Source of the DNA: Solirubrobacteraceae bacterium
GTDB taxonomy: Bacteria; Actinomycetota; Thermoleophilia; Solirubrobacterales; Solirubrobacteraceae
Assembly (NCBI GenBank): GCA_024711025.1
Contig: JANJTP010000049.1
Coordinates: 1 to 62,771 of the forward strand
Length of the DNA: 62,771 nucleotides
Direction: 5' to 3'
Each line of letters begins with the position of its first letter. Position 1 is the first letter of the stretch. The notes beneath the pieces are model-generated. The model had not been told where the DNA came from, ran no database searches, and saw only the letters and a program-made list of their open reading frames with translations. Of this stretch, positions 6,324 through 17,691 are shown piece after piece. Made by a program: the position numbers and the translations under genes.

Positions 6324-6719
6324 CTACAGCTCGGTAGGGCCAACCACGAATCCCAGCCGCGTGGTTCCACGGCGCAGGCGAGCGTCGAGGGTGACGAGCT
6401 TGCAGTCGAGGATCCGGGCGAGCGCGACGTAGTTGGCGTCATAGGTCTTCGCCCAGCCGAGCTCGTCGGCCACTGCCCAGGATTCCGTGAGCAGCTCCTC
6501 AGGCTCGATTCGCGTGATCGGAGCGTTGAGCGCGCGCTGGCGCATCGGCTCGGCTTGGTCACGGCGAAGCTCACCGCGCCACATCGCTGCATGCAGCGCG
6601 GAGACCACTTCGATCCACAGCAGCGGTGGTGCGAGGAGCGCGGCGCCGTCGAAGCGGGCGAAGCCGACTGGGGTTGCCGACGCTGCGATCGTGACGCTCG
6701 CGTCGAGGACGAGCTTCAC
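6324..6719 (-). CDS. VapC-like PIN-domain toxin
   Basis: 131 aa from a GTG (complement of 6717-6719). The PIN signature is complete: MKLVLDASVTIA (first Asp), a Glu in PPLLWIEVVSAL, the Asp in ELGWAKTYDANYVALA, and a terminal acidic residue in LVTLDARL. It should act as an Mg-dependent ribonuclease. Its start overlaps the antitoxin stop by 4 bp (GTGA), so translation is coupled. Confidence 0.85.
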   Translation of the reverse strand: MKLVLDASVTIAASATPVGFARFDGAALLAPPLLWIEVVSALHAAMWRGELRRDQAEPMRQRALNAPITRIEPEELLTESWAVADELGWAKTYDANYVALARILDCKLVTLDARLRRGTTRLGFVVGPTEL

Positions 6720-6967
6720 CGGCCGCTACGCGAGAGAGCCACCGCTGCGACCCAGTTCGGCGCCGGGCTGCCGTCCTCGAGGCGCTGCCACTCCAGCGGC
6801 ATCGGCAGCATCGGGTACAGCTCGTCACGAACGCTGTCCAGGTCGACTGGGTCGATCACGCGCCGGCGACCTTCGGTGCGCGAGCTGAGGCGACCATCAC
6901 GGATCCAGCGGCGCACCGTCGCCGGGCTGCGCCCGACCCTGCTGGCAGCTTCCTCGACGGTCAGCAT
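6716..6967 (-). CDS. excisionase/MerR-type HTH antitoxin
   Basis: 83 aa, starting at the ATG complementary to 6965-6967 (MLTVEEAASRVGRSPATVRR). The N-terminal 45 residues form the excisionase-like helix-turn-helix (WIRDGRLSSRTEGRRRVID); the remainder is an acidic and proline-containing tail (DELYPMLPMPLEWQRLED) suited to toxin binding. It overlaps the PIN toxin by 4 bp, so it is most likely the antitoxin and autorepressor rather than an excisionase. Confidence 0.75.
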   Translation of the reverse strand: MLTVEEAASRVGRSPATVRRWIRDGRLSSRTEGRRRVIDPVDLDSVRDELYPMLPMPLEWQRLEDGSPAPNWVAAVALSRSGR

Positions 6968-7064
6968 GACTGGATCGTACGCCGCGCATCGGCGCACCTG
7001 AGCCCCGTGGTAGTCGCGCGGTACGTCCCGCCGCACCCAGATCGGTCGATCTCCTCGCGATCTG

Positions 7065-7652
7065 GTGGGAGACTTCCGGTGGGCGCGGCGACGATCGTCA
7101 GCGAAGCGCAGAGGTCTGGGGCTTGGTCTGCCGCGCAGCTTGCCGCTAGTCCGGATCTTGCAGCAACGAGCAGCGGGCCCGGGGATCGGGGTCGCTGAAG
7201 AGCGGGCGTGGCGGCTGGGGTGCCGTCCCGACGGGCCGCTGATCATCGACGTCGACGCAACACTGATCACCGCGCACTCTGAGAAGGACGGGGCGGCGGC
7301 GACCTACAAGCGCGGGTTCGGCTTTCACCCGATGATGGCCTACCTGGACTTGCCCACCGGCCCGGCGGGCGGCGTGCCGCTCGCCGGGCTTCTGCGGGCG
7401 GGGAACGCGGGCGCGAGCACCGCCGCCGATCACATCGACGTGCTCGACCAGGCGCTCGCGCAGCTGCCGCAAGAGGTCGCGGCCGACGGGGAGATTCTCG
7501 TGCGCTGCGACTCGGCCGGCGCCACGCACGAGCTGCTCGACTATGGCCGCCAAGCCCGGATGCGCTTCTCGGTCGGCCTGCATCTGAGCGAGACGGTCCG
7601 CGCGGCGATTCTCGCCGTCGCCGACCGATTGGATGCCCGCCCAGAGCGCTGA
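7065..7652 (+). pseudogene. IS1380-family transposase, internal fragment
   Basis: About 195 codons of an IS1380-type DDE transposase normally ~450 aa. The catalytic first Asp region PLIIDVDATLITAHSEKDGA and the following TYKRGFGFHPMMAYLD, GLLRAGNAGASTAADHIDVL and VRCDSAGATHELLDY are clear. N-terminal ~100 residues are frame-disrupted (7000-7100) and the C-terminal third is missing where the fragment meets an IS110 remnant near 7655-7690. It cannot transpose. Confidence 0.8.
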
Positions 7653-7689
7653 GGGCGAGATCCGCGCGAACATCGCGGCCCTGGAACGA

Positions 7690-7989
7690 CGCGTCGATTC
7701 GGTCGGTCTTGCAGGCCAGCGGTCCGAGGCCCTTGACCTTCTGCGCGTCGGCGATCTCGACCTCCCAGCCGTGCTGCTCGAGCGTGTCGTGCACGAACCG
7801 CGCGCCGTTCATCGACTCGAGCGCCGCGCGCACCAGCACCGGGTCATGACGCTCCTCAACACCGTGCGCGAACCCGCGCAGACCGTCCGCATCCGGGGGC
7901 GCAGCGCCCACCTCCAGCCGATCGTCCGCCTCATCGAGCAGGCAATAGTCCAGCCGCCTGCGGCTCAAATCCAAACCAGCGTGCAACAT
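7690..7989 (-). pseudogene. IS110-family transposase, N-terminal fragment
   Basis: Exactly the first ~100 codons of an IS110-type DEDD transposase survive, from the ATG complementary to 7987-7989: MLHAGLDLSRRRLDYCLLDE, ALESMNGARFVHDTLEQHGW, IADAQKVKGLGPLACKTDRI. The RuvC-like first Asp (GLDLSRRR) and the KTDRIDA motif are present. After KTDRIDA the frame changes into the IS1380 remnant, so the C-terminal catalytic serine domain is lost. Confidence 0.8.
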
Positions 7990-7995
7990 GTGAGC

Positions 7996-8052
7996 GGGCC
8001 TCCTCGTGGTAGCTCTTCGGTGGACACGCTGAGCGTGCCACCGAGGAGGCCC
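7996..8052. repeat. inverted repeat in the IS110 5' non-coding end
   Basis: GGGCCTCCTCGTGG (7996-8009) pairs with CCACCGAGGAGGCCC (8038-8052), with only one bulged base, around a 28-nt loop. It lies just upstream of the IS110 transposase start, where IS110 elements encode their guide ('bridge') RNA. The structure may be a piece of that RNA or the end of the element; which one is not decidable by eye. Confidence 0.5.
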
Positions 8053-8142
8053 TCCTTCACGACACTCAGTCGCACGGGTCGTCGACCACACCCCCCACAA
8101 CGTCTGTGTCAGAACCGAGCCCAAGCGGGCGACCCGTTCCGT

Positions 8143-9214
8143 ATGACCCCCATCACGCCGCGAGCAAGTATCCGAGCCGACTACCGCGACTTCATCGATT
8201 CGCTCTTCCTACATGAGGCGATGAGTGCCGGGCTTCGTGCCGTGCGTGGGGGAAACTGGACGTCTGCGGCGAACGCCCTTGACTGCGGGCTCGACGTCGT
8301 CGGCACAGCGCGGTACGACTTCAATGGGTCCGACGAAGTACTCGCCCGCGTGGGGTCGGGCCTCGTTCACGTCATTCAGCGCGAGCACGCGATCACCGTG
8401 CGCATCGCTGCCGCGGATGATGATGGGACGGCGGAGATCGAGCGCATGCTTCGCGAACTCATTCCGCCAAACTTCCCTTGCAGAGGACAGCGGCGCAGTC
8501 GAAGCGCGGTTCTGGTGGTCGCAGCCGCAAGGGTCGAACCGCCAAATCGCGCGTACGCTCAACGCGTCGAGCTGGCCTTCCATCCGCCCCAACTACGCCG
8601 GTGGCGTCAGGCAGTCCCTTGACGGTCTCGTGGCGCAGCGTCCGCCCATCGCGGGGGGACGCCTACTGCTGTTCCAGGGCGCTCCCGGTACAGGGAAGAC
8701 CCACGCGACGCTCGCGCTCGCCAGCGCTTGGCAGAGCTGGCTCGACACGGAGATCATCTCGGACCCGGAGCAGCTCTTCGGTTCACCGCAGTACCTGCTC
8801 GACGTTGTGACGCGCGGGCGCGAGGCCCGCAGCAAGCGCGACCGCTGGCAGTTGCTGGTGGTCGAGGACGCCGGCGAGTTCCTGACGCCTTACGCCAAGT
8901 CCGACAACGGTCAGGCTCTCTCGCGCCTCCTGAACCTCACCGACGGTGCGCTTGGGCAGGCCACGAACACGCTCGTCCTGATCACGACGAACGAGAAGCT
9001 CGACAACATGCACGAGGCCATCGCGCGGCCCGGACGGTGCCTCGCCAGCGTTTCATTCGCGTCCCTCGCGCGCGACGAGATCCGAGAGTGGTGTCGACTC
9101 CACGAGGTGCCAGTCCCCGATCGGACGTCGATGACCTTGGCCGAGTTGTACGGGCTCACGGCAGACGTGCCCATCGCCTCGGCGACCGAGCGCCGCTTTG
9201 GGTTTGCCGCGTAG
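8143..9214 (+). pseudogene. DUF5925-type AAA ATPase with an internal frameshift
   Basis: Two frames join into one protein of ~355 aa. From ATG 8143 (MTPITPRASIRADYRDF) the first frame reads well to about 8477 (ELIPPNFP). The next frame then continues with LAEDSGAVEARFWWSQPQGS and a complete AAA core: Walker A QGAPGTGKTH, Walker B-like LLVVEDAGEF, sensor-1 LVLITTNE and an arginine at ARPGRC. The one-base shift near 8480 separates the N-terminal domain from the ATPase. It resembles actinobacterial DUF5925-AAA proteins, whose role is unknown. Sequencing error or true inactivation are both possible. It lies 190 bp upstream of the EVE-nuclease operon. Confidence 0.75.
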
Positions 9215-9403: not shown

Positions 9404-9841
9404 ATGAGCATCAAGTACTGGGTGTACACGATCGGTACGCGCGACGCGAAGCCGCCAGAGGGTTGGCTGGCCGAGTGGCCGCACCACGCGTACGAGATGT
9501 GGTTCACGGGCACCAAGAAGCCAACGGGCATCAGCGCCGGGGACCGCGCCATCTTCTACGGGTCGCACGGTCGCGGCTTCCTCGGCGCGGTAGAAGTCGC
9601 CGGACGTGAGCCGCAGCCCAACCGGGACAAGGATGCCGGTGGTCGGAAGCGGTGGCCGTGGGTGCTCGAGCATCGTTTGCTGGTGGCCAAGGCCGCAGAC
9701 CGGCACATCGCCAGTCCCGACGCTGCCGGCATCAACGCGCGCCGCATAGCCCGCGGCCCCCACACCGAGATCGGCGCCGACGAGTACATGGCTGCGCTGG
9801 AGCAGCTGCTCGCCGCGGCCGCTGAGAGCGCCGCGCCATGA
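9404..9841 (+). CDS. EVE-domain (PUA-like) protein
   Basis: 145 aa. The EVE/YTH-like pattern is seen: KYWVYTIGTRD at the N-terminus, a tryptophan-rich loop YEMWFTGTKKPTGISAGD and RAIFYGSHGRGFLGAVEVAG. C-terminal helices resemble a GINARRIARGPHTEI segment. EVE domains have an aromatic cage that binds modified bases, chiefly cytosine derivatives, in DNA. Its stop overlaps the next start (ATGA), so it is made with a nuclease-like protein. It is probably the base-recognition subunit of a modification-dependent restriction system. Confidence 0.8.
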   Translation: MSIKYWVYTIGTRDAKPPEGWLAEWPHHAYEMWFTGTKKPTGISAGDRAIFYGSHGRGFLGAVEVAGREPQPNRDKDAGGRKRWPWVLEHRLLVAKAADRHIASPDAAGINARRIARGPHTEIGADEYMAALEQLLAAAAESAAP

Positions 9842-10698
9842 GCCCAACTCCGGCTGTTCTTCGGCTGCGCATCCTCACCAGCAGCCGTGACGAGTACCCC
9901 GGTGAAGCTGAGCGCGTGTGCCTGCAGGAGGGCATCGCCGCCGTCGGCTGGGCAATCAACCGAACTCCCGCAAGCTGGGAGGACTACTACGAGCGCGCAG
10001 TCGAGTACTACAGCCGCCGTGAGGCCAACACCGTCGAGCGGCTCGTGCAGGCGCCCTCCGGCACGCTGATCTGGTTCCTGGACCGGGAGGGCGGATACCA
10101 CTTGGGCGAGTTGCACGGCAGCTGGCGCTACGAGGAGAGTCCGCGCGCGGCGCGGCTGGATATCGCCAATACCCGCCCCTGCCGCTGGCGCTACGTCGGT
10201 TCGGCCCTCGATGTGCCGGGAGTCGTGGTGCGTGCGTTCACCGGCCCGGGGCAGGCGGTACGGGCCATCAACGACGCCAGCGCTGCGCGCTTCAGCAGGG
10301 CGCTCAACAACGGCACAAGTCCCGCCGCCGACTGCACTTCGGCCGAGGTCATCCGTGACCTGCTCGACGACACGGATGTCGAAGACCTCGTCGCGCTCTA
10401 CCTGCAACACAAGGAATGCGTGCTGATCGTTCCCCCGGACCGCCAACGCGGCCACCCCGGCTATGACCTCGAGTTCGTCTCACCCTCGGGGCGCCGCGGA
10501 CTCGTTCAGGTCAAGTCCGGCTCCGCCACCTACGACTTCGACGACCTCACCGATCACGCAGGCGAGAAGTGGGCGTTCGTCGCCAGTGGCAACGTCAGCG
10601 GAGACGGGCGAACCATCACGCTGGACCAACTTGCGGCCTTCCTGGAGGAATCCCGCGACTGGCTCCCCAGCAAGCTAGCCCGCTGGGCCGCACCGTGA
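9838..10698 (+). CDS. putative PD-(D/E)XK endonuclease with N-terminal PUA-like domain
   Basis: 286 aa. Residues ~5-135 look like a second PUA/EVE-like barrel (LRLRILTSS, EAERVCLQEGIAAVGWAIN, GYHLGELHGSWRY). The C-terminal part has the nuclease core: E182 in VEDLVALYLQ, D210 in HPGYDLEF and the Q224-V-K226 of GLVQVKSGS, i.e. the Mrr-like QxK form of the PD-(D/E)XK site. It would cut DNA recognised by the EVE partner. ATGA overlap with the upstream gene implies a fixed stoichiometry. No methyltransferase is nearby, consistent with type IV restriction. Confidence 0.65.
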   Translation: MSPTPAVLRLRILTSSRDEYPGEAERVCLQEGIAAVGWAINRTPASWEDYYERAVEYYSRREANTVERLVQAPSGTLIWFLDREGGYHLGELHGSWRYEESPRAARLDIANTRPCRWRYVGSALDVPGVVVRAFTGPGQAVRAINDASAARFSRALNNGTSPAADCTSAEVIRDLLDDTDVEDLVALYLQHKECVLIVPPDRQRGHPGYDLEFVSPSGRRGLVQVKSGSATYDFDDLTDHAGEKWAFVASGNVSGDGRTITLDQLAAFLEESRDWLPSKLARWAAP

Positions 10699-13945: not shown

Positions 13946-14645
13946 TCAGCTGCTCGGTCGGGTGGTGGTCCAGAGCTCGGCGGGGCGGCCGGCGGTGAGC
14001 GTCCGCTGGCGTTGGGCGCGGCCGGCGGCGGCGAGCGTGTGGAGCGCTTGTTCGAGGCGCTGGGCGGGGAGGTTGCGTTGGCAGAGGTCGCGGATCTGGG
14101 TGCGGGTGAGCCCGTCGGGGGAGCGGGCGAGCGCGGCGTGGATCTGTTCGGCGAGCGGGTCGCCGGTTGCCTGGTCGAGCGCCCAGGCGGCTGAGCGGGC
14201 GGCGTAGTCTGAGAGCGCGAGCGCGGCGTGGAGGTGCTGGGGCCCGATCTGGCGCTGGCCGTCGTCGTGCAGCGCGTAGAGGAGCGCGAGCCGGATCGTG
14301 TGCGCTTCGGCGCGCGCGGTGAGATTGCCGGTGAGGCCGTCGCCGGGTGCGGTGAGCCGCGGGTAGAGCTGCCACCACAGCTCGCGTGCGTCAGCGTTGA
14401 GCGTGAGCTGCCCGGCGGTCTTGGCGTGCTTGAGCACGCCTGCGAGGTAGCGGGCGAGCCCAGATCCTTTGAGCGGGTCGGGGTCGCCGCCTTCTGGCAG
14501 CAACCTGACGCGTCTGACCGCGAGGAGCAGGAAGCCGTTGAGGAAGCCGTTGGCGATCTCGACGGTCGTGGTGTGGCGGCGCAGTTCGGTGTCGGTGATG
14601 TGCCCGATGATCGAGATGTGCGCACTGGTCGCCCTGGTGGGCGCG
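13946..14645 (-). pseudogene. C-terminal fragment of a DUF3987/YfjI-type replication protein
   Basis: About 230 codons with the signature SAHISIIGHITDTELRRH, EIANGFLNGFLLLAVRRVRL, DARELWWQLYPRLT, ARAEAHTIRLALLYALHDDG and a C-terminal wHTH (LTRTQIRDLCQRN). These are the end of the primase/helicase-like DUF3987 proteins of integrative elements and phages. The N-terminal ATPase part is absent because an IS3 remnant abuts near 14645. It is evidence of a former integrated element in this region. Confidence 0.65.
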
Positions 14646-15251
14646 GTGCGTGTCAGCAGCGCCAATGGTCGGCCGCACCGCGCGCGCTTCGGGGTCGAGC
14701 CGATCTGCAGGGTCCTGGGCGTGTCGGCGTCCGCCTACTACGAGCGCGCCACGGGCCAGCGCTCGGCCAGGGCGATCGAGGACGAGCGGCTGTTGGCCGT
14801 GATCCGCGAGATCCACCAGGCCAACTACGAGGCCTACGGCTACCGCCGCACCTGGAAGGCGCTGCTGCGGGCCGGCGAGACGGTTGGCCGCGATCACGTC
14901 AAGCGCCTGATGCGCGCCCACGGCATCCAGGGCGCCAAGCGTCGCGGCAAGCCCTGGCGCACCACCACGCCTGATCCGACGGCGCTGCGGCCGCCGGATC
15001 TCGTTGACCGCGACTTCACCGCCAGCCGGCCCGACGAGCTGTGGGTCGCGGACTTCACCTACCTGCGCTGCTGGGAGGGTCTGGTCTTCTTCAGCTTCGT
15101 CATCGACGTCTTCTCCCGGCGCGTGGTCGGCTGGCAGTTCGCCAGCTCGATGCGCACCGACCTGGTCCTCGACGCGCTGCGGATGGCGCTCACGCGGCGC
15201 GCGGCCGGCGCCGACGTGAAGCTCATCCACCACAGCGATGCCGGCAGCCAA

Positions 15252-15279
15252 GGCGGACTCAAGGGGTCGTCGCAACACC
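15252..15279. repeat. IS30 left terminal inverted repeat
   Basis: Outer 28 bp of the element; matches the complement of 16829-16856 with a single C/T difference at position 7. Confidence 0.95.
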
Positions 15280-15441
15280 GGGTTGTCGGTAGCGCAGCGT
15301 AGCCGCGGCTGGGACTTCAGGTGAGACCCGTGTGGCGGTCGTCGCGCAGGCTCGCCCGTAGGGCGGGCCGCAGCGGCGACCGCCACACGCGTGACCGCGC
15401 TCCGGGTCGGGTCCCCGGCCGTGACGGTGCGGTCGTGCCCG

Positions 15442-16809
15442 TCAGCCGGCGGCGGTGAGGTGCTCGTTGAGGACCTCGGCCGGGGTGCGCCAGCCGAGCG
15501 TCTTGCGTGGCCGGCTGTTGAGCGCGTCGGCGACGGCGGCCAGGTCGCTCGGGCTGTGGCGCGCGAGGTCGGTGCCCTTGGGGAAGTACTGCCGCAGCAG
15601 CCCGTTGGTGTTCTCGTTGGTGCCCCGCTGCCAGGGGCTCTGCGGATCGCAGAAGTACACCTGCAGGCCGGTGTCGATCTTCAGCTGGGCGTGCTGGGCC
15701 AGCTCGGCGCCCTGGTCCCAGGTCAACGAGCGGCGCAGGTGCTCGGGCAACTCACCGAGCTGCGTGGTGATCGCGTCACGGACGGCCGCGGCGCCCGCGC
15801 CGGTGACCGCCGGCCCGTTCTTTACCCTCGGGCCGTGGTCGGGCATCGACGGCAGGTGCAGCAGCATTGTGAAGCGACTGGAGCGCTCGACCAGCGTGCC
15901 GATCGCTGAGCGATCGGTCCCGATGATCAGATCGCCCTCCCAGTGGCCGGGGACGGCGCGGTCGACGGCCTCGGCCGGGCGCTGGCTGATCATCACCTCC
16001 TCGCTGATGAAGCCCTTGCCGCGCGCGCCGACACGGGCCCTCGGGACGCGCAGCGCGCGGCCGGTGCGCAGGCAGGCGGTCAACTCGCGCTTGAGCGCGC
16101 CGCGGCCCTGCACGAACAGCGACTGGTAGATCGCCTCGTGCGAGATCCGCATGCTCGAATCATCGGGGAAGTCGACCTTCAGCCGAGCCGAGATCTGTTC
16201 CGGGCTCCACGCCTTGACCCACCTGCGGTCCTGACGACGCGGCCGGTTGCGGCCCTTCCACGCCTTGACCACCGGCCCCGCCACCGCGCTGCCGTCGGGC
16301 CGGCGGACCTGGCCAGCAAGCCGCTCGGCAACGTAGTCGCGCAGCCGGTCGTCGGCCGCGAGCTTGGCGGTCTTCGGACGCCGCGCCATCAGCTCGGCCT
16401 TCCACTGCGCCACCGACGCCCGGTACTCCAGCTTGCCGCCCCTGGTCGCCGCGTTGCGCCGCAACTCGCGCGAGATCGTCGACGGCGACCGGCCGATCTC
16501 CCGCGCGATCTCGCGTACGCCCTTGCCCTCGGCGCGCAACATGGCGACCTTCTCGCGCTCGGCGAAGCACAGGTACCGGCACGAGACGGGATCCAGCAGG
16601 AACGTCGCCATGCCGCCACGCTCTCGGAACCATCGGCTGCCAGCCGCCGACGAGACGCCGACGGCCAGCGCCGCATCCTCGCTGCTGAGCCCCTTGCCAA
16701 CCTCCTGCCAGAACCACCGCTCGACCTCGCGCCGATGCGACGGCTTGCCCGGCGACCTCATCGCCGAGCGCCCCGTCAACTCCGTCATCCAACCAGCCGG
16801 CCTGCCCAT
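15442..16809 (-). CDS. IS30-family transposase (intact)
   Basis: 455 aa; a start at the ATG complementary to 16807-16809 is used. N-terminal HTH region (FAEREKVAMLRAEGKGVREI, GRSPSTISRELRRNAATRGG), then the DDE catalytic domain: PGHWEGDLIIGTD (first D), SLTWDQGAELAQHA (second D) and GTNENTNGLLRQYFPKGTDL (E). All three acidic residues are present and the frame is uninterrupted, so the enzyme is probably active. It is the only apparently intact transposase in the window and sits within perfect IS30 borders. Confidence 0.93.
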   Translation of the reverse strand: MGRPAGWMTELTGRSAMRSPGKPSHRREVERWFWQEVGKGLSSEDAALAVGVSSAAGSRWFRERGGMATFLLDPVSCRYLCFAEREKVAMLRAEGKGVREIAREIGRSPSTISRELRRNAATRGGKLEYRASVAQWKAELMARRPKTAKLAADDRLRDYVAERLAGQVRRPDGSAVAGPVVKAWKGRNRPRRQDRRWVKAWSPEQISARLKVDFPDDSSMRISHEAIYQSLFVQGRGALKRELTACLRTGRALRVPRARVGARGKGFISEEVMISQRPAEAVDRAVPGHWEGDLIIGTDRSAIGTLVERSSRFTMLLHLPSMPDHGPRVKNGPAVTGAGAAAVRDAITTQLGELPEHLRRSLTWDQGAELAQHAQLKIDTGLQVYFCDPQSPWQRGTNENTNGLLRQYFPKGTDLARHSPSDLAAVADALNSRPRKTLGWRTPAEVLNEHLTAAG

Positions 16810-17594: not shown

Positions 17595-17601
17595 CACAAG
17601 G

Positions 17602-17691
17602 CGGAGGGGGAGGGATTCGAACCCTCGGTAGAGGGGTTACCCCTACAACGGTTTTCGAGACCGCCCCGTTCAACCACTCCGGCACCCCTCC
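17602..17691 (-). tRNA. tRNA-Ser (anticodon CGA)
   Basis: Read leftward from GGAGGGGTG, the 90-nt cloverleaf has a 7-bp acceptor stem (GGAGGGG with CCCCTCC), D-arm GAGTGGTTGAAC, anticodon loop CTCGAAA (anticodon CGA, reading UCG), a long class II variable arm (GTAGGGGTAACCCCTCTAC) and T-loop GGTTCGAATCC. The discriminator base is G and CCA is not encoded. The long variable arm confirms serine. It borders the mobile-element region on its 3' side, a classic integration position. Confidence 0.96.

What the first reader, a model, noticed from the sequence alone, without database searches (positions are those of the whole stretch)
9404..10698. Two-gene EVE-domain plus PUA/PD-(D/E)XK operon, likely an uncharacterised type IV restriction system
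Seen: ATGA-coupled genes, an EVE-type protein and a protein with a second PUA-like barrel plus an Mrr-like nuclease core (E182, D210, Q224-x-K226), with no methyltransferase. Known: EVE/YTH domains bind modified cytosine and are fused or paired with modification-dependent nucleases. Inference: the pair cuts DNA carrying modified bases such as phage DNA, with recognition split over two proteins. I do not recall this exact two-PUA arrangement as a described system.
Basis: partly seen in the sequence, partly recalled or inferred. Interest (0 to 1): 0.65.

Follow-up and report, generated by a model that had tools for sequence, protein, structure and literature searches.

The report
Modified-base nuclease with coupled EVE gene
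Two overlapping bacterial genes encode a small EVE-type base-reading protein and a nuclease with its own base-reading domain; the nuclease belongs to an already catalogued but untested family of single-gene phage-defence candidates (PDC-S02), probably cuts DNA with chemically modified bases, and its EVE partner looks like a local addition rather than a new system.

Summary
Gene A (9404-9841, 145 aa) and gene B (9838-10698, 286 aa) overlap in ATGA. A is EVE-related (profile-profile 96.6%, E 6e-10). B's residues 1-161 fold like YTH/EVE readers (Z 9.4 to YTHDF2, 9.0 to EVE protein PH1033, 8.8 to EVE-HNH enzyme VcaM4I). Its C-terminus carries E182, [D/E]210 and [Q/S]VK226 as a PD-(D/E)XK core; K226 is invariant in 14 nuclease-bearing sequences. 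B is not an uncatalogued system: it matches PADLOC candidate family PDC-S02 over its whole length (E 4e-50). Relatives from Actinomycetota, Alphaproteobacteria, Bacillota and a Clostridioides phage often lie beside Hachiman, Gabija-type, AAA-HNH, type I RM or SIR2-HerA genes. B usually stands alone: no other relative checked has an EVE-like gene beside it, and in 399 genomes of the class A-like and full-length B genes occur together only here. Best reading: a one-protein modification-dependent (type IV-like) nuclease with a coupled, lineage-specific second reader. Cleavage and target base are inferred. New and testable: W38, at a predicted base-pocket position, is present in all 13 nuclease-fused readers covering it and in none of 13 free-standing ones.

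The parts
9404..9841 (+). Gene A: stand-alone EVE-related (PUA superfamily) protein, 145 aa; candidate second modified-base reader
   Evidence: ORF; Pfam EVE E 0.016; 7 of 12 homologues hit EVE, best 9e-5; hhalign to accepted EVE proteins 96.6%, E 6.3e-10; top PDB profile hits include EVE structures 2gbs and 1wmm, not significant on their own
9838..9841 (+). ATGA stop/start overlap coupling A to B
   Evidence: sequence
9838..10698 (+). Gene B: PDC-S02 family protein, 286 aa, predicted YTH/EVE-like reader fused to a PD-(D/E)XK nuclease
   Evidence: PADLOC PDLC04816 E 4.1e-50 over residues 7-284; relatives hit the same model; AF2 model pLDDT 81.8
9838..10320 (+). B residues 1-161: YTH/EVE-like reader domain, with conserved G37-W38, W79, D108, V126-P127-G128
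   Evidence: VIA-align Z 9.4 YTHDF2, 9.0 PH1033, 8.8 VcaM4I over residues 1-161; conservation
9949..9951 (+). Codon of W38, candidate base-pocket tryptophan; present in nuclease-fused readers, absent from free-standing ones
   Evidence: 13/13 fused vs 0/13 free-standing sequences covering the site
10339..10695 (+). B residues 168-286: PD-(D/E)XK nuclease domain; E182 (10381-10383), D210 (10465-10467), Q224-V-K226 (10507-10515)
   Evidence: conservation; model secondary structure; Foldseek matches to AspBHI, NucS and viral restriction/VRR-NUC-type nucleases

Best explanation
B is a single-protein, NTP-independent modification-dependent restriction endonuclease. Its N-terminal YTH/EVE-like domain flips and holds a modified base in an aromatic pocket (W38 is the predicted pocket tryptophan), and this brings or releases the C-terminal PD-(D/E)XK domain (E182, D210, Q224-x-K226) to cut incoming phage or plasmid DNA. 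A is a coupled second, EVE-type reader, gained in this lineage, that probably helps B find or discriminate modified DNA but is not part of the ancestral unit. Inferred: cleavage, dependence on modification, which base, and any physical A-B partnership.
For: Full-length PDC-S02 match shared by relatives from three phyla and a phage. PD-(D/E)XK motif conserved. Relatives lie beside HamA and a helicase plus a NOV_C/DUF3883 protein, an AAA-HNH pair, type I RM plus SIR2 and DUF87 genes, type I RM plus an OLD-TOPRIM/helicase pair of Gabija type, a McrB-like AAA ORF ending 11 bp before B (L121; McrB-like by eye), the lysis end of a prophage-plasmid, and directly after a tyrosine integrase (L024). A's nearest relative (41%) lies beside a C5 methylase and a McrB-like AAA gene; another lies beside a HsdM/HsdS gene. 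A and B sit in a GC dip (68% against 72% for the window) between transposase remnants, and the 16 same-genus genomes searched lack both, as expected of an acquired module.
Against: No experiment on any member was found; PDC genes are described as unvalidated (PMC12988326, PMC10855318). Motif II is Glu rather than the usual Asp in all relatives but this one. The host encodes C5 and N6/N4 methylases, so the target cannot simply be any 5mC or 6mA. Related reader domains occur free-standing in ordinary chromosomal settings in Actinomycetota, so the fold alone does not prove a defence ligand. No recognised defence system lies next to the window pair itself. The A-B pair is not conserved.
Confidence: 0.66

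Rival explanations
1. Obligate two-subunit type IV system: A and B form one complex and both readers must find a modified base before B cuts.
For: 4-bp ATGA overlap; both proteins are modified-base-reader types; stand-alone EVE genes paired with restriction systems are described (PMC7641849).
Against: B relatives stand without an EVE-like gene: none of the 15 loci searched with the A profile, nor L120 or L121, has one. In 399 class genomes, 28 carry an A-like gene and 6 a full-length B, but both occur together only in this genome, about what chance gives (0.4 expected).
Confidence: 0.15
2. The reader recognises modified RNA (such as m6A or tRNA marks) and B is an RNA-acting or abortive-infection effector rather than a DNA restriction enzyme.
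For: Most YTH relatives in the structure list bind m6A in RNA; free-standing reader domains are common in Actinomycetota chromosomes; some type IV relatives (CoCoNuTs) are predicted to target RNA (PMC11090510).
Against: PD-(D/E)XK enzymes are mostly DNA nucleases (established knowledge); the best whole-length match is the DNA enzyme AspBHI; a YTH domain also reads 6mA in DNA in an archaeal McrB (PMC7641849).
Confidence: 0.13
3. B is a DNA-repair or housekeeping nuclease (NucS-like), or catalytically dead, with no defence role.
For: NucS (2vld) is among the Foldseek matches; position 210 is Glu in the relatives.
Against: Patchy distribution (6 of 399 class genomes), plasmid, phage and integrase neighbourhoods, repeated defence neighbours, invariant K226.
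Confidence: 0.06

Closest known systems
PADLOC candidate family PDC-S02 (PDLC04816)
   Same: B matches over its whole length, E 4e-50; ten relatives tested match the same model.
   Different: The PADLOC entry carries no description and is a one-gene candidate; here B is translationally coupled to an EVE gene.
EVE-PD-(D/E)XK and YTH-PD-(D/E)XK fusions of Bell, Wolf and Koonin 2020 (PMC7641849)
   Same: Same architecture: EVE/YTH-like reader fused to a PD-(D/E)XK nuclease, predicted type IV restriction.
   Different: B is not detected by Pfam EVE or YTH models; whether it was inside that census could not be checked.
VcaM4I (EVE-HNH) and AspBHI (modification-dependent endonuclease)
   Same: Base reader and nuclease in one chain; VcaM4I reader Z 8.8, AspBHI best Foldseek hit.
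   Different: VcaM4I has an HNH nuclease; no sequence similarity to either was detected.
Stand-alone EVE proteins beside type I RM and SWI2/SNF2-nuclease systems (PMC7641849)
   Same: A is a divergent stand-alone EVE protein; relatives lie beside a HsdM/HsdS gene and beside a C5 methylase plus McrB-like AAA.
   Different: Here it is coupled to a nuclease that already has its own reader.

Membership tests
PDC-S02 (PADLOC) | Significant match over most of the PDLC04816 profile | tested here: met
   E 4.1e-50, protein 7-284, profile 3-291 of 299
PDC-S02 (PADLOC) | Found embedded among defence genes | tested here: met
   Relatives beside Hachiman, type I RM, SIR2-HerA, Gabija-type and AAA-HNH genes; not shown for the window locus itself
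NTP-independent modification-dependent (type IV) restriction endonuclease | PUA-superfamily modified-base reader domain | tested here: met
   Residues 1-161 match YTH/EVE structures, Z up to 9.4; fold only, ligand not tested
NTP-independent modification-dependent (type IV) restriction endonuclease | Nuclease core with conserved catalytic residues | tested here: met
   E182 (13/14), [D/E]210, [Q/S]224-V-K226 across 14 sequences
NTP-independent modification-dependent (type IV) restriction endonuclease | Cuts modified but not unmodified DNA | not testable with these tools
   needs biochemistry or phage plating
NTP-independent modification-dependent (type IV) restriction endonuclease | No cognate methyltransferase in the unit | tested here: met
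   Neighbouring ORFs are a DUF5925-AAA ORF, transposase remnants and a collagen-like ORF; no methylase in the pair
EVE domain family (gene A) | Similarity to the Pfam EVE profile above the curated cut-off | tested here: not met
   15.7 bits against cut-off 23; A is therefore called EVE-related, not a Pfam EVE member
EVE domain family (gene A) | Profile-profile homology to accepted EVE proteins | tested here: met
   hhalign 96.6%, E 6.3e-10 over 74 columns
Two-gene EVE plus nuclease system | Conserved co-occurrence of A and B | tested here: not met
   Only the window genome carries both among 399 class genomes; no EVE gene beside other B genes

The most novel reading that the evidence does not exclude
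A and B form a true two-reader restriction complex in which a separate EVE protein and B's own YTH/EVE-like domain each read a modified base, so that cutting needs two marks (for example a pattern typical of hypermodified phage DNA); this would let the cell tolerate its own 5mC and 6mA.
Probability: 0.15. Interest if true: 0.68.

Novelty: new member of a known kind. Interest (0 to 1): 0.42.

Why it matters
PDC-S02 is predicted in 39 of 100 Pseudomonas aeruginosa strains of one panel (PMC10855318), including strain PA14 (PMC11878078), and 2,715 times in rumen genomes (PMC13356809), yet none of the four papers found that name it tests it, and the PADLOC entry carries no description. The fold and motif evidence here gives this family (at least its PDLC04816 branch) a concrete, cheap-to-test mechanism, a reader plus a PD-(D/E)XK nuclease, and names residues to mutate (W38, E182, D210, K226). 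The W38 contrast between nuclease-fused and free-standing readers suggests how one reader fold was retuned for defence. The coupled EVE gene is a natural case for testing whether a second reader changes the target range.

Tried and rejected
Viral-contig scans with A1 and with the Clostridioides, Streptococcus and Gluconobacter relatives found no relatives; the Levilactobacillus relative found three near-identical prophage copies. Single-sequence AlphaFold2 of A gave pLDDT 40 and was not used. Sequence searches of the PDB with B alone or its 8-row profile gave nothing meaningful. B's reader could not be linked to EVE or to A by profile comparison, so that link rests on the structural comparison only. 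Considered and rejected: A and B as a conserved system (co-occurrence test); the reverse-strand ORF 9556-10455 as the real gene; the upstream DUF5925-AAA ORF as a McrB-like partner (its N-terminal part looks non-coding and it is separated from A by 189 bp), although an AAA gene directly precedes B in one relative (L121).

Full report
Gene A (9404-9841) and gene B (9838-10698) are real ORFs joined by ATGA. A 299-aa ORF on the other strand (9556-10455) covers much of both, but third-position GC (0.85 and 0.83 against 0.74) and homology favour A and B.

What B is. Pfam and NCBIfam have no model for it, but PADLOC family PDC-S02 matches over the whole length with E 4.1e-50. Relatives were found in Solirubrobacterales and wider in the class, a Rhodospirillales genome bin, plasmids of Rhodovastum, Gluconobacter, Methylobacterium, Lachnospira, Streptococcus, Lactiplantibacillus and Levilactobacillus, and one Clostridioides phage record. 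The ten tested are PDC-S02 too.

Fold and active site. An AlphaFold2 model with a six-row alignment has pLDDT 81.8. Residues 1-161 align with YTH domains (YTHDF2, Z 9.4, 122 residues, rmsd 3.3), the EVE protein PH1033 (Z 9.0) and the EVE part of VcaM4I (Z 8.8); the best Foldseek hit is the modification-dependent enzyme AspBHI. These Z values are moderate, but nearly all rows are YTH/EVE-type readers and they span the whole domain. The C-terminal part has the E182 / [D/E]210 / [Q/S]224-V-K226 pattern: K226 is invariant in 14 nuclease-bearing sequences, E182 is kept in 13 of 14, and residue 210 is Glu everywhere except in the window protein, where it is Asp. The nuclease domain was not modelled or searched alone.

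A reader-pocket clue. Nuclease-fused members have G37-W38 in 13 of 13 sequences covering the site; free-standing reader proteins of about 160-200 aa, common in Actinomycetota and without obvious defence neighbours, have D, E or G in place of W38 in 13 of 13. D108 and G128 show a similar contrast (D108 less strictly). By order along the chain W38 follows the first helix, where the cage Trp of YTH domains lies (own knowledge) and where the EVE pocket residue W26 of 2eve (P24 in VcaM4I; PMC7897488) is expected; this placement is inference, because residue-level structure alignments were not available. The free-standing proteins may form one clade, so the contrast could reflect descent as well as function.

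What A is. Pfam EVE is sub-threshold (15.7 of 23 bits), but 7 of 12 homologues hit EVE (best 9e-5) and the A profile matches accepted EVE proteins of related genomes at 96.6%, E 6.3e-10. The host has another, regular EVE protein elsewhere (contig C59). A's nearest relative (G051, 41%) lies beside a C5 cytosine methylase and a McrB-like AAA gene, and another lies beside a HsdM/HsdS-type gene.

Is it a two-gene system? There is no sign of that. A search of 15 B loci with the A profile found an EVE-like ORF only in the window, and two further B loci have none. Among 399 genomes of the class, 28 have an A-like gene and 6 a full-length B; the overlap is this genome alone, against 0.4 expected by chance. 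B relatives are typically lone genes.

Defence setting. Relatives lie beside HamA and a helicase (Hachiman) plus a NOV_C/DUF3883 protein, an AAA-HNH pair annotated as retron-type, type I RM with SIR2 and DUF87 genes, type I RM with an OLD-TOPRIM ATPase and a helicase of Gabija type, integrase and lysis genes of a prophage-plasmid, a tyrosine integrase (L024), and a McrB-like AAA ORF 11 bp upstream (L121). The window pair itself lies in a stretch of lower GC flanked by transposase remnants, with no recognised defence system next to it; the 16 same-genus genomes searched lack both genes.

Mechanism. The simplest reading is a one-protein modification-dependent nuclease, as proposed in general for EVE/YTH-PD-(D/E)XK fusions (PMC7641849) and shown for the EVE-HNH enzyme VcaM4I (PMC7897488), whose reader flips 5mC or 5hmC and whose reader and linker hold back the nuclease. 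The host encodes at least two full-length C5 methylases and N6/N4 methylases, so the target must be a base or context that these do not make. A may widen, sharpen or restrain recognition; nothing here decides which.

Known or new. The nuclease family is already catalogued as a defence candidate; the four papers found that name it only predict it and do not test it; and the architecture is described. New here are the fold and motif evidence for this family, the W38 contrast, and a single case of coupling to a separate EVE reader.

Noticed in passing
window 8225-9214 (+): DUF5925-AAA ORF upstream of A: the AAA part and the last 50 residues of DUF5925 are present but the first ~85 residues look non-coding, while an overlapping frame (7633-8622) reads protein-like without matching Pfam; possible frameshift, truncation or assembly error.
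   Followed up: partly
window 7065-8124 and 14469-16809: Transposase genes or remnants flank the region: DDE_Tnp_1_4 (7065-7652), IS110-type fragment (7267-8124, -), IS3-type (14469-15302) and IS30-type (15442-16809, -), with a tRNA-Ser at 17600-17691.
   Followed up: partly
window 6324-7270 (-): HTH_17 protein (6716-7270) overlapping a PIN-domain gene (6324-6719) by 4 bp, a likely toxin-antitoxin pair; a second PIN gene lies at 1573-2085.
   Followed up: no
L065-L069, L072, L073 (about 160-210 aa proteins): Free-standing relatives of B's reader domain are common in Actinomycetota chromosomes in non-defence settings; the PADLOC PDC-S02 model still hits them (E 2e-10 to 2e-17), so hits without the nuclease half may be miscounted as defence genes.
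   Followed up: partly
   Followed up: no
L087:4986-5879: Streptococcus salivarius plasmid members of PDC-S02 are annotated 'ribonuclease D', probably a misannotation.
   Followed up: no
L056:2059-5392: A's closest relative lies beside a C5 cytosine methylase and a McrB-like AAA gene on the opposite strand, a possible EVE-associated methylase/McrB locus.
   Followed up: no
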